In this document: positions 6,423 through 10,036 of the stretch, piece by piece
Layout: each line of letters starts with the position of its first letter
Position numbering within the stretch: the first letter of the stretch is position 1
Source: Paracoccus sp. (in: a-proteobacteria)
GTDB taxonomy: Bacteria > Pseudomonadota > Alphaproteobacteria > Rhodobacterales > Rhodobacteraceae
Direction: 5' to 3'
DNA: 11,312 nt
Assembly (NCBI GenBank): GCA_031178645.1
Contig: JAPSIP010000027.1
Coordinates: 1-11,312, forward strand
Program-made: the position numbers and the translations under genes
Notes under the pieces: generated by a model
Seen by the model: the letters and a program-made list of their open reading frames with translations, nothing else
Database searches by the model: none
What the model was told of the DNA's origin: nothing

Positions 6423-6462
6423 CGTTAACGGCTTGTGAACGGGAATGGGCGATCATGGGGGG

Positions 6463-6768
6463 ATGTCGCGCTATCTTGGCCCTCGCCTGCCCGGCGTTCC
6501 GATCTTCTTCACCGTCGCCTTGACGCAGCGCGGCAGCCGGCTGCTGGTGGAACAGGTCGAGGGTTTATGCGATGCCGTGAGGGTGACGCGGGCGGAACGG
6601 CCTTTTACGATCGACGCATGGGTGGTCTTGCCAGATCACCTGCATTGCATCTGGCGCTTGCCCGAGGGGGATTGCGACTATGGCGTCCGGTGGGGAGCGA
6701 TCAAGGCGCGGTTTTCACGAGCGGTGAGAGGAACGGTGGGGTGGAACCCCCCCTTACACTGCTCTTGA
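6463..6768 (+). pseudogene. truncated REP-associated tyrosine transposase (RAYT, Y1-transposase family)
   Basis: The 101-residue reading frame starts MSRYLGPRLPG and contains FFTVAL, WVVLPDHLHCIW with the HUH metal motif (His59, His61), and WGAIKARFSRAV, the normal order of a RAYT related to IS200/IS605 transposases. Full members run on to about 150-190 residues with a stretch like WQRRFWEH and a catalytic Tyr region before HINPVKHG; all of that is missing. The coding match fades after VGWNPPL (residues 92-98) and stops at TGA (6766-6768), exactly where the sequence turns AT-rich. It therefore lacks the Tyr nucleophile and should be inactive. The lost 3' half is not found between the next gene and lepA, so insertion with deletion, or replacement, is more likely than a clean insertion. 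The start at 6463 follows the family; an ATG at 6445 is also in frame. Confidence 0.82.
6735..6753 (+). repeat. REP-like hairpin at the truncated end of the RAYT gene
   Basis: GGTGGGGT (6735-6742) pairs with ACCCCCCC (6746-6753) around loop GGA with one mismatch. It encodes the VGWNPPL end of the truncated transposase and lies directly before the change in base composition. RAYTs act on short GC-rich palindromes (REP sequences), so a target-like hairpin here is plausible, but this is inference from shape only. Confidence 0.35.
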
Positions 6769-6782
6769 TACTTGAAAGCCGC

Positions 6783-6811
6783 TCAACTTTCCGAGAATGT
6801 GTGGCTATGAT
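6783..6811 (+). promoter_or_regulatory. possible promoter of the DUF262-HNH gene
   Basis: TATGAT at 6806-6811 is a good -10-like hexamer 17 bases before the first ATG of the gene. The -35 region is poor (TCAACT at 6783-6788, 17-base spacer). If used, the leader would be about 10-15 bases, just enough for the GGAA at 6822-6825. It lies within the AT-rich segment, suggesting the gene carries its own promoter. Confidence 0.35.
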
Positions 6812-6831
6812 CTTACGGCACGGAAATTATG

Positions 6832-8202
6832 ATGAATGAACAAGATGCGGCGATCTATAACTCGGAAGAATCAGTCAATCTAGAAACGCTGATATTCTCA
6901 GACGCTGATGATGAATACGCAACGGAAAGTGCATCTGCTCTTGCCCCAATGCGTTATGACACAATGCAGCGCAAGGTTAAAGATCTTCTATCGGACTACA
7001 GCACCGGCGACCTAGATCCGAGGCCTTCGTTTCAGCGAGGGTATGTTTGGGACAAAGCAAGAGCATCCAAACTGATAGAGTCAATATTATTGAATGTTCC
7101 TCTTCCTCTCATTTATACAGCAGAAGAGCAAGATCAGCGTGAGGTGGTCATAGACGGGCAGCAGAGATTACTGTCCGTTTTTGGCTTTATCCAAAATAAG
7201 TTCCCTCGTGACGGTTCTGAATTCAAGCTAAGAGGACTTAAATTTCTGCCAGAACTCAATGGCAAAACCTTTGACCTACTACCTGAAAAAGAAAGAAGAT
7301 ATATTCAAAAGTATATATTCCAAGTAATACGGATCAGTGGCGACACTCAGCCTGATGTAAAGTTTGAGATATTTGAGAGGCTGAACTCAGGATCAGTAAC
7401 GTTAAATGCACAAGAATTAAGAAACTGCGTTTTTAGAGGAAACTTCAATCAGCTTCTGAAAGATTTAGCTAACTTGTCTGATTTTAGAAAACTGCTTGGT
7501 GGCGCATCAACAGTGCGAATGCTTGACGCTGAGCTGGTTTTGAGATTCCTAGCATTTCTCGATAAAACCTATCTTAATTACCCGGGAGCGATGACCTCTT
7601 TCCTAAACGAATTTATGAATGATAATAGAAACATAGATGTCAAGAAATCTCAGCATTTTTCTGATAAATTCCGACATGCAACATCGTTGTCTTATTCAGT
7701 ATTCGGCTCTCATGCTTTCAAGAAATTCACTGTCGGTAAGCACGGTAGTGAAAATGGCTCTTGGGAGAGGGCATTCAATCGCCCCCTCTACGATGTAGTA
7801 ATGTGGGGATTTACACGATATGAGAAAAATCAGATTTTCCCCCATATTGATGCTATCAGAGATAATCTTATCGAGCTTATGACAACTGACCCTATCTTTG
7901 TGGATACGATTACTTCCGCCGTTGGAGACAGAACGAAAACCACTTATCGCTTCGAAGCTTGGCGTGACCGCCTTAAGTCGATTGTAACCAATGAAAAGTC
8001 CCAAAGATCATTCTCGCAAATTGTTCGCAAAAATCTCTTTGAGCAAGATCCGACCTGTGCTCTTTGCAAGAACACCATTGTCATGTTCGATGATAGCCAT
8101 GTTGACCATATTGTGCCGTTCTCAAAAGGAGGCCTCACGAAGGAAGAAAACGCACAGATCACCCATCGCTATTGCAATCAGTCAAAGTCGGCCTCGCTAT
8201 AG
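6832..8202 (+). CDS. DUF262 (GmrS/ParB-like) - HNH endonuclease fusion, probable defence protein
   Basis: The 456-residue protein joins two domains. Residues about 1-38 are an acidic lead-in. A DUF262 domain starts near residue 40, with RPSFQRGYVWD (64-74) and the nucleotide-handling motif DGQQR (108-112), as in GmrS, SspE and other restriction-like proteins; FERLNSG and LNAQELRNCVFRG follow. A middle region (about 215-395) is unassigned. Residues about 400-456 are an HNH nuclease: C409-x2-C412, D425-H426 in VDHIVPFSKGG, N440, H445, and CNQSKS from C448. By family, DUF262 binds or hydrolyses nucleotides and the HNH cuts DNA, often modified or phage DNA. It differs from GmrSD and SspE, which carry DUF1524-type nucleases and are longer. 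GGAA (6822-6825) favours the ATG at 6832 over 6829. Base use is strikingly AT-rich with many AGA, ATA and TTA codons, unlike all neighbours: a horizontally acquired gene. No dnd, ssp, brx or methylase gene is nearby. Confidence 0.9.
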   Translation: MNEQDAAIYNSEESVNLETLIFSDADDEYATESASALAPMRYDTMQRKVKDLLSDYSTGDLDPRPSFQRGYVWDKARASKLIESILLNVPLPLIYTAEEQDQREVVIDGQQRLLSVFGFIQNKFPRDGSEFKLRGLKFLPELNGKTFDLLPEKERRYIQKYIFQVIRISGDTQPDVKFEIFERLNSGSVTLNAQELRNCVFRGNFNQLLKDLANLSDFRKLLGGASTVRMLDAELVLRFLAFLDKTYLNYPGAMTSFLNEFMNDNRNIDVKKSQHFSDKFRHATSLSYSVFGSHAFKKFTVGKHGSENGSWERAFNRPLYDVVMWGFTRYEKNQIFPHIDAIRDNLIELMTTDPIFVDTITSAVGDRTKTTYRFEAWRDRLKSIVTNEKSQRSFSQIVRKNLFEQDPTCALCKNTIVMFDDSHVDHIVPFSKGGLTKEENAQITHRYCNQSKSASL

Positions 8203-8208
8203 AAGTTT

Positions 8209-10008
8209 TCACCCATCCATCTTCAGCGCCTGAATAAACGCCGTCTGCGGGATCTCCACCTTGCCGAACTGGCGCATCTTCTTCTTGCCGGCCTTCTGCT
8301 TCTCCAGCAGCTTCTTTTTCCGCGTCGCGTCGCCGCCATAGCATTTGGCGGTCACGTCCTTGCGCATGGCCGACAGCGTTTCGCGCGCGATCACGCGGGC
8401 GCCGATGGCGGCCTGGATCGGGATCTTGAACATGTGCCGGGGGATCAGTTCCTTCAGCTTTTCAACCATGACGCGGCCCCGCGCCTCGGCGCGGTCGCGG
8501 TGGACCATGATGGACAAGGCGTCCACGGGTTCGTCATTGACCAGGATCGACATCTTGACCAGGAAATCCTCGCGGTATTCGCTGATCTGGTAATCGAAGC
8601 TGGCATAGCCCTTGGTCACGGATTTCAGGCGGTCGTAGAAGTCGAAGACAACCTCGGCCAGGGGCAGGTCATAGACGACCATCGCGCGGCTGCCGGCATA
8701 GGTCAGGTCCAGCTGGATGCCGCGGCGGTCCTGGCACAGCTTCAGCACGTCGCCCAGGTATTCGTCCGGCACCATGATCGTGGCCTTGATGCGCGGTTCC
8801 TGGATATGGTCCACATGGGTCAGGTCGGGCATGTCGGCGGGGTTGTGCAGGTCGCGGACCTCTCCGTCGCGCATGTGCAGCTTGAAGACCACGCTGGGGG
8901 CGGTGGTGATCAGATCCAGGTCGTATTCGCGTTCCAGCCGGTCGCGGATCACCTCGAGGTGCAGCAGACCCAAGAAGCCGCAGCGGAAGCCGAAGCCAAG
9001 CGCGGCCGAGGTTTCCATTTCGTAGCTGAACGAGGCGTCGTTCAGGGCCAGCTTCTCGATGGCGTCGCGCAGGGCCTCGAAATCGTTGGCATCGACGGGG
9101 AACAGGCCGCAGAAGACCACCGGCTGGGCCGGCTTGAAGCCTGGCAGCGCCACCTCGGCACCCTTCTTTTCGTGGGTAATCGTGTCGCCCACGCGGGTGT
9201 CGCGGACCTGCTTGATGGATGCGGTGAAGACGCCGATCTCTCCCGGTCCCAGTTCGGCGATGTCCACCATCTGCGGGGTCAGGACGGCCAGCTTGTCGAT
9301 GCCATAGACCGCGCCGGTCTGCATCATCTTGACCCGCTCGCCCTTGCGGATCACGCCGTCCATGACGCGGATCATCACGACGACGCCCAGATAGGCGTCG
9401 TACCAGCTGTCCACCAGCATGGCTTTCAGCGGCGCGTTGCGGTCGCCCTTGGGGGCAGGCAGGCGGGTGACGATGGCTTCCAGCACGTCGGGGATGCCCA
9501 GGCCGGTTTTCGCGGAAATCGGGATCGCGTCGGAGGCGTCGATTCCGATCACCTCCTCGATGTTTTCCTTGACACGCTCGGGTTCGGCGGCAGGCAGGTC
9601 GATCTTGTTGAGGACCGGCACGATCTCGTGGCCCGCGTCGATGGCTTGGTAGACATTGGCCAGCGTCTGCGCCTCGACCCCCTGGGATGCGTCCACGACC
9701 AGCAGCGATCCCTCGACCGCGCGCATGGACCGGCTGACCTCATAGGCAAAGTCGACGTGGCCCGGCGTGTCGATCAGGTTCAACACATAGGTCTGCCCAT
9801 CCTTGGCGGGATAGATGATGCGGACGGTGTTGGCCTTGATGGTGATGCCCCGTTCACGCTCGATATCCATGCTGTCCAGCATCTGGGCCTTCATGTCGCG
9901 GTCGGCGACAGTGCCCGTCGACTGGATCAGCCGGTCGGCCAGGGTGGATTTGCCGTGGTCGATATGGGCCACGATGGAGAAATTGCGGATCAGGGAAAGT
10001 TCGGTCAT
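8209..10008 (-). CDS. lepA: elongation factor 4 (LepA), ribosome back-translocating GTPase
   Basis: LepA is a translational GTPase related to EF-G that acts on ribosomes, with roles proposed in back-translocation, initiation and 30S assembly, notably under ionic stress. From the ATG at 10008 the protein has 599 residues, the family length. GTPase motifs are in order: AHIDHGKST (14-22), RERGITI (51-57), DTPGH (80-84), NKID (134-137) and SAKTG. The LepA-specific C-terminal domain is present, ending in the lysine-rich stretch after [10 protein letters not shown] and in QALKMDG. A TTG at 10023 in frame would add 5 residues, but [19 protein letters not shown] is the normal start. The upstream Shine-Dalgarno is weak. 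It lies 49 bases after the transporter gene on the same strand. Its stop is 6 bases from the stop of the convergent DUF262-HNH gene, marking the right edge of the acquired DNA. Confidence 0.97.
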
Positions 10009-10022
10009 GGCCGGCCTATACA

Positions 10023-10036
10023 AGGGCTTTGGCCCT
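10023..10036 (-). other. short hairpin in the gap before lepA
   Basis: AGGGC (10023-10027) and GCCCT (10032-10036) form a 5-base stem with a 4-base loop in the gap between the transporter stop and the lepA start. On the minus strand it is followed by TTGTATAGG, not a T-run, so it is at best a weak terminator or a leader hairpin of lepA; chance is possible. Confidence 0.25.

What the first reader, a model, noticed from the sequence alone, without database searches (positions are those of the whole stretch)
6760..8208. Solitary DUF262-HNH gene on an AT-rich island: candidate single-gene anti-phage or restriction-like system
Seen: the segment is far more AT-rich than its surroundings (hand counts: bases 7261-7320 have 18 G/C of 60, bases 9001-9060 within lepA have 36 of 60). 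It encodes one intact protein with FQRGYVW and DGQQR of DUF262 and a complete CxxC/DH/N/H/CN HNH site. Known: DUF262 with a nuclease domain occurs in GmrSD, SspE and related defence proteins. Inference: a compact one-gene system of about 456 residues, with a Cys-type HNH in place of DUF1524, without modification genes beside it, would target foreign or modified DNA alone. I know of no named system with exactly this layout, but I cannot search.
Basis: partly seen in the sequence, partly recalled or inferred. Interest (0 to 1): 0.72.

Follow-up and report, generated by a model that had tools for sequence, protein, structure and literature searches.

The report
Lone DUF262-HNH nuclease in defence slot
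A single foreign-looking gene for a predicted DNA-cutting defence protein sits directly behind the housekeeping gene lepA, in a spot where related bacteria carry different foreign genes, several of them defence-like; the protein type is already described, the spot appears not to be.

Summary
Window 6829-8202 (+) encodes 457 aa: DUF262/GmrSD_N plus a C-terminal Cys-type HNH, on a 42% GC segment in 65% GC surroundings. The most likely role is a one-protein, Type IV-like restriction system; no activity was testable.

By sequence, residues 28-386 fit Menshen NsnA best (E 8e-90), but no such partner lies beside it, and 20 relatives' loci show no common partner.

The more unusual result is the place. 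Of 99 usable lepA loci of the same genus (inferred Paracoccus), 40 have an AT-rich segment at the lepA 3' end, mostly with different cargo. Seven of 19 cargo loci scanned match PADLOC models at E<=1e-10, against 1 of 40 control proteins. GTAG-tagged REP hairpins mark the far end in 15 of 33 loci, and a RAYT transposase gene is often next. Slot-positive strains share a distinct lepA 3' tail. In the window RAYT homology stops at such a REP. My paper searches found no report of this hotspot. How the cargo moves is not shown.

The parts
6829..8202 (+). DUF262-HNH gene (457 aa; second ATG at 6832 gives 456 aa)
6976..7431 (+). DUF262 / GmrSD_N domain, residues 50-201, ParB/Srx-like fold
   Evidence: Pfam E 1e-29; model aligns with BrxU, SspE and ParB chains
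7033..7038 (+). QR motif, residues 69-70
7153..7167 (+). DGQQR motif, residues 109-113, predicted NTP pocket
   Evidence: role from PMC10952713 passages
7372..7386 (+). FxxxN motif (FERLN), residues 182-186
   Evidence: motif named in PMC12137116 passages
8056..8193 (+). HNH nuclease domain, residues 410-455 (CxxC, DH, N, H, CN)
6761..8208 (.). AT-rich slot between the REP-like sequence and the lepA stop codon
   Evidence: 42.3% GC; other cargo in other strains
6735..6760 (-). degenerate GTAG-REP-like hairpin inside the RAYT ORF; RAYT homology stops at its tag end
   Evidence: weak hairpin, z -1.36
6445..6768 (+). truncated RAYT (REP-associated tyrosine transposase) ORF, 107 aa
   Evidence: NF047646 E 7.3e-25, profile 7-88 of 146; relatives end-to-end
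8209..8241 (-). lepA 3' tail of the slot-positive type (2 of 3 AT codons, ...GATGGGTGA)
8209..10023 (-). lepA, convergent with the cargo gene, 6 bp between stops

Best explanation
A horizontally acquired one-gene, Type IV-like DNA restriction protein carried in a strain-variable slot behind lepA. Shown by computation: the two domains, intact conserved motifs, foreign composition, no close orthologue in the relatives searched, and a site with changing, often defence-like cargo. Inferred: DUF262 binds an NTP at QR/DGQQR and senses a mark on incoming DNA (base or backbone modification, or another non-self sign); the helical middle passes an NTP-driven shape change to the C-terminal HNH, which nicks or cuts that DNA. 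A similar DUF262 protein works in Menshen beside a predicted OLD nuclease; here the module carries its own HNH, so no partner need be assumed. The cargo probably reached the slot by exchange between strains, with lepA on one side and the REP/RAYT side on the other; a deletion between a cargo-end REP and a REP inside RAYT would explain the cut RAYT gene.
Confidence: 0.6

Rival explanations
1. Abortive or partner-dependent defence: the protein is an NsnA-like sensor that needs a host or distant partner and harms host DNA on infection, not a self-sufficient restriction enzyme.
For: Best sequence match is NsnA; PMC12373910 says two of its GmrSD systems are extremely toxic and that two-gene ParB_n systems exist.
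Against: No recurring neighbour in 20 loci; HNH complete in 117 of 120 listed relatives (by Pfam label). NsnB in the own genome gave only E 2.6e-4 and 4.2e-4, and that model matches all 14 control genomes, so the search is uninformative; NsnC was not searched; the assembly is 71.5% complete.
Confidence: 0.2
2. A phage- or plasmid-borne nuclease of another use (packaging, competition between elements), stranded in the chromosome.
For: DUF262 matches in 784 plasmid records and 34 phage records; L027 relative next to a terminase (by eye).
Against: Plasmid and phage matches mostly cover the N-terminal part only: 18 of 784 and 1 of 34 records cover 80% or more of the query. No phage gene seen in the window; other strains carry defence-like genes at the same place.
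Confidence: 0.12
3. For the slot: the lepA tail is selected, not transferred. Cargo read from the lepA message favours an unstructured lepA end, so the tail changes after cargo arrives; REPs are only the usual flanks of RAYT; cargo moves by ordinary homologous recombination.
For: At least nine cargo ORFs of 100 aa or more start within 8 bp of the lepA stop on the same strand. RAYT genes are usually flanked by GTAG REPs or other inverted repeats (PMC3733652 passages). Twenty other REP pairs have no AT-rich cargo beside them. No second copy of the tail.
Against: Strains with convergent cargo, the window among them, have tails of this type too. The GGGT/GAGT end is in the slot-positive member only in 28 of 36 nearest pairs and in the negative one only in 0.
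Confidence: 0.45

Closest known systems
Single-gene GmrSD systems with ParB_n + HNH (PMC12373910, section 10 read)
   Same: One protein, DUF262/ParB_n plus HNH nuclease, no modification gene
   Different: Those were taken from Enterobacteria; which of the tested ones are HNH types I could not see; identity to this protein not compared
GmrSD / BrxU / SspE (PMC4619093 and PMC10952713 passages)
   Same: DUF262 with QR, DGQQR; helical middle; C-terminal His-Me-type nuclease
   Different: Cys-type HNH PF01844 in place of DUF1524; shorter (457 aa); no BREX or Ssp genes recognised in the window
Menshen NsnA (PADLOC PDLC03877)
   Same: Residues 28-386 match 32-383 of the 385-position NsnA model, E 7.7e-90
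   Different: HNH added after residue 386; no OLD-type NsnB recognised beside it
GrwAB, Dazbog, PD-T4-2 (PMC12137116 and PMC10952713 passages)
   Same: DUF262 proteins in defence systems; PD-T4-2_A model matches at 7.3e-46
   Different: GrwAB and PD-T4-2 are multi-gene; GrwA has DUF1524
Core-gene defence hotspots (PMC10121019, PMC10250203; search listing and start of abstract only)
   Same: Fixed chromosomal site with changing defence cargo
   Different: Here mostly one small cargo unit between the lepA stop and a REP/RAYT side, with a distinct lepA tail
RAYT/GTAG-REP elements (PMC3733652 passages)
   Same: RAYT gene with GTAG-tagged hairpins, REPs also inside genes
   Different: Foreign cargo between lepA and the REP/RAYT; I saw no such case in the passages

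Membership tests
GmrSD in the strict sense | N-terminal DUF262 with QR, DGQQR and FxxxN | tested here: met
GmrSD in the strict sense | C-terminal DUF1524 (PF07510) | tested here: not met
   No PF07510 at E<=0.1; PF01844 HNH instead
GmrSD in the wide sense (ParB_n plus HNH or DUF1524, PMC12373910) | ParB_n/DUF262 and an endonuclease domain in one protein | tested here: met
   definition
GmrSD in the wide sense | NTP-stimulated, modification-dependent DNA cleavage | not testable with these tools
   needs the purified protein
Menshen | NsnA-type DUF262 protein | tested here: met
   PDLC03877 E 7.7e-90
Menshen | NsnB (OLD-type) and NsnC beside it | tested here: not met
   No OLD/ATPase ORF recognised around the gene: neighbours are RAYT and lepA, and eight window ORFs scanned against Pfam show none. 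NsnB elsewhere in the genome: uninformative
Ssp / SspE | SspE-type protein with sspABCD | tested here: not met
   SspE model only E 2.6e-4 over residues 48-87; no ssp genes recognised among the window ORFs scanned
Defence hotspot (fixed site, changing defence cargo) | Different cargo at one conserved site, enriched in defence models | tested here: met
   the control proteins are mostly core genes, so the enrichment test is rough
RAYT/REP element at the slot | RAYT gene with GTAG-tagged REPs beside it | tested here: met
   NF047646; REPs at the border in 15 of 33 slot-positive loci; degenerate in the window
Integrase-type island | Direct repeat of the target gene end at the far side | tested here: not met
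   Best match 18-24 of 36 bases, shuffles reach 20-24

The most novel reading that the evidence does not exclude
The lepA 3' end and a GTAG-REP/RAYT unit together form a cassette-exchange site: mostly one-gene defence cassettes, often ending in a REP hairpin and often reading from lepA, are swapped at a fixed lepA tail by the RAYT single-strand transposase, an integron-like arrangement that would give RAYT genes a host benefit and a defence role. The window would be a cassette whose REP recombined with a REP inside RAYT and so froze it.
Probability: 0.15. Interest if true: 0.85.

Novelty: new variant of a known kind. Interest (0 to 1): 0.52.

Why it matters
The gene adds a compact member to the DUF262-nuclease defence proteins and shows an NsnA-type module with its own nuclease, so the role of DUF262 can be tested in one protein. 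The slot gives a fixed address in this genus where new defence genes can be looked for: several of its cargoes have no known family. The tie between a RAYT/REP unit, a distinct lepA tail and defence-like cargo gives a testable lead on what RAYT genes do and on how very small defence genes move with no integrase seen beside them.

Tried and rejected
A second copy of the lepA tail (an attR-like repeat) was sought within 5 kb downstream in the 36 slot-positive and 9 intermediate loci: best matches are 18-24 of 36 bases, and shuffled tails reach 20-24. The comparison took the best of six searches against single shuffles, so it leans towards finding a copy, and still found none. A plain integrase-type island is not supported.

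Rfam (gathering scores) and tRNA genes: none in the window.

REPs as general cargo markers: 20 other REP pairs from five genomes (G003, G012, G024, G084, G088) had no AT-rich segment within 2.6 kb. This speaks against 'every REP carries cargo'.

Clade effect on the lepA tail: mean identity of the lepA body is 0.892 within slot-positive, 0.884 between groups and 0.888 within slot-negative strains. The 36 pairs are greedy nearest neighbours, not strictly independent lineages; no tree was built.

First scan of genome contigs with one sequence found no relative; the scan with the alignment found 110, of which 80 were kept. The first REP pattern had the wrong spacing and is discarded. A looser REP rule gave 21 of 41 loci; I use the stricter 15 of 33. 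Rows left out: 3 of 102 loci too short; G035, whose lepA end my pattern missed, is absent from the tail counts. G047 holds 630 N, 61 of them in the 400 bases that class it; it was kept. Promoter scan: no site upstream of the gene. Foldseek against PDB was not run; re-aligns Foldseek's own ranking. The viral library gave DUF262/GmrSD_N-type proteins at TM (query) up to 0.37. Papers: in the listings returned by four searches I saw none that joins RAYT with defence cargo or names a lepA defence hotspot; 514, 275, 0 and 1,107 papers matched, 20, 20, 0 and 10 were listed. In the one opened for 'lepA' (PMC9122126) the match is an author name. Subscription papers are mostly not held.

Full report
What is there. 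Window 6829-8202 (+) holds an intact 457-aa ORF. Pfam finds GmrSD_N/DUF262 (PF03235, E 1e-29, residues 50-201) and HNH (PF01844, E 1.2e-8, residues 410-455), and no DUF1524 at E<=0.1. In an alignment of 28 relatives QR, FERLN, CxxC, DH, N, H and CN are invariant, and so is DGQQR but for its middle Q, which is nearly invariant. The family is large: 4348 proteins at E<=1e-3 among 8000 scored candidates; 117 of the 120 listed have both domains.

Is the layout known? Yes. [quoted passage not shown] Representatives of 15 groups were tested; five systems besides the three already studied showed activity against T-even phages. Which of these are HNH types I could not see. PMC4619093 (passages) describes GmrSD as mainly fused proteins often encoded near defence and mobility genes.

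Partners. In 20 loci with relatives I saw no recurring neighbour (gene names are mine, by eye from protein beginnings; three relatives, L006, L020 and L023, look split). Two Rhodobacteraceae carry the gene directly behind parE (L002, L003); others sit by trpC (L005), ureC (L006), between lysA and dapF (L010), before dnaX (L012), and one just before a prophage terminase (L027). Two lie near type I restriction genes (L015, L016), one near a MazEF-like pair (L012). DUF262 matches occur in 784 plasmid records (18 covering 80% or more of the query) and 34 phage records (1 such).

Sister strains. Of 148 genomes searched, the own one included, 23 have a match at E<=1e-3; after the own gene the best is 33% identical (G055). 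The window's genome is an incomplete assembly (2.03 Mb, 421 contigs, 71.5% complete). The genus is inferred as Paracoccus: contig C2 of G055 (99,949 bases) has the length and match position of the P. pantotrophus plasmid NZ_CP044424.1.

The slot. Close lepA relatives have other AT-rich genes between lepA and the RAYT gene or the next shared genes. lepA was found in 117 of 121 same-genus genomes. I used 102 of these loci: 100 fetched, G012 and the window; the others end at contig borders or were not fetched. Of 99 long enough, 40 have an AT-rich segment of at least 400 bp, 38 of them beginning at the lepA stop. The 1 kb behind lepA is under 50% GC in 23 of 92 loci, against 20 of 2205 control windows further out (Fisher p 2e-22, but the windows overlap). 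DNA of the first 200 bp is shared with 0.3 other genomes on average in slot-positive loci and 3.4 in slot-negative ones.

The cargo. I scanned 20 proteins from 18 other loci, chosen for a long callable ORF. PADLOC matches at E<=1e-10: G003 (AriA 7.5e-32, Old 2.9e-30, also GajA and NsnB models), G051 (AbiU 3.4e-82; AIPR in Pfam), G046 (PDC-S59 3.9e-13; TIR in Pfam, STAND-type weakly), G084 (TIR; PDC-S66 6.5e-20), G155 (RelA_SpoT; PDC-S33 1.4e-61), G087 (DUF2971; PDC-S31 6e-27). With the window 7 of 19 loci; control 1 of 40 proteins of the same loci, 40 taken of 70 eligible; Fisher p 9e-4, and 0.0026 for 6 of 18 without the window. The other 12 loci had weak matches (G054 6e-4, G010 2e-3) or none at E<=0.01; of these G088 has DUF7946 and G006 DUF6414 in Pfam.

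The lepA border. Slot-positive strains (36; first 400 bp under 53% GC) end lepA with TGGGTGA in 24, GGAGTGA in 6, TGGGTAG in 3, TGGGTAA in 2 and TAGCTGA in 1; the 55 slot-negative strains (58% or more) have many other ends, TGGGTGA in 7 and GGAGTGA in 1. Two or three of three AT-type tail codons (TTT, ATT, TTG) occur in 31 of 36 AT loci, 6 of 9 intermediate and 17 of 56 GC loci. Synonymous identity is 0.93 versus 0.64 in the four codons just before these, and not consistently different further upstream. In 36 nearest pairs of slot-positive and slot-negative strains the GGGT/GAGT end is in the positive one only 28 times and in the negative one only 0 times; for AT codons it is 26 to 2 with 8 ties.

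The far border. GTAG-tagged REPs with a stem of at least 6 bp lie within 250 bp of the AT/GC change in 15 of 33 slot-positive loci and at 0 of 6600 random points from 3.5 kb outwards in the same loci; in 50 slot-negative loci they are rare. Copies per genome are 1 to 79 in 12 slot-positive genomes and 0 in the 4 slot-negative ones tested.

RAYT. A RAYT of this type is in 33 of 121 same-genus genomes. Comparing its coordinates by hand, it lies within 5 kb of the lepA 3' end in 29, cannot be placed because lepA is at a contig end in 2 (G021, G072), and is elsewhere in 2 (G014, G059); G015 has a second copy elsewhere. Of 36 matches 17 contain stop codons, some perhaps past the natural end. Four RAYT genes (G012, G024, G152, G006) contain an in-frame REP that four others (G051, G044, G040, G084) lack; in the window close RAYT homology stops at the tag end of that internal REP. 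In G024 the cargo-end REP and the RAYT-internal REP have the same orientation, so a deletion between direct repeats would give the window's arrangement; this is inference. The window's REP-like sequence folds only weakly. A translated search aligns decayed residues up to 6858, so a short degenerate RAYT remnant beyond 6760 is not excluded.

How it may move. Shown: fixed site, changing cargo, shared tail, REP border, RAYT linkage. Not shown: any mechanism. Exchange by homologous recombination over lepA and the REP/RAYT side is the plain reading; gene transfer agents, known from this bacterial order, would suit the size (recalled, not tested). RAYT-driven exchange is the bold reading; against it, REPs elsewhere have no such cargo, no second tail copy was found, and 14 or so slot-positive strains have no RAYT of this type.

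Verdict. Observation confirmed; interpretation partly supported. The protein is a new member of a described kind. The lepA-REP/RAYT slot was not seen in print in the listings and is the part worth following; it is why I rate the whole a new variant of a known kind.

Noticed in passing
window 6761-8208 and lepA 3' flanks of same-genus genomes (L131-L230): Strain-variable AT-rich cargo slot between the lepA stop and a REP/RAYT side, with a distinct lepA tail
   Followed up: yes
L122 (G012), L137 (G024), L142 (G152), L149 (G006): RAYT genes that contain an in-frame GTAG-REP (reads VGWNPTLR), which RAYT genes of other strains lack
   Followed up: partly
L002 9995-11329 and L003 6031-7365: Relatives of the gene stand directly behind parE (by eye) in two Rhodobacteraceae: perhaps a second such slot
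   Followed up: no
L027 9989-11308: A relative stands just before a prophage terminase (by eye), so the family may also serve phages
   Followed up: no
L131 (G038) and L181 (G029), behind lepA: Both cargoes begin with a similar VFVAGGMP protein; in G038 transposase-like pieces follow (by eye)
   Followed up: no
L137, L138, L142, L165 slot ORFs (G024, G010, G152, G043): Slot proteins of 235-426 aa with no Pfam match at E<=0.01: candidates for unknown defence genes
   Followed up: no
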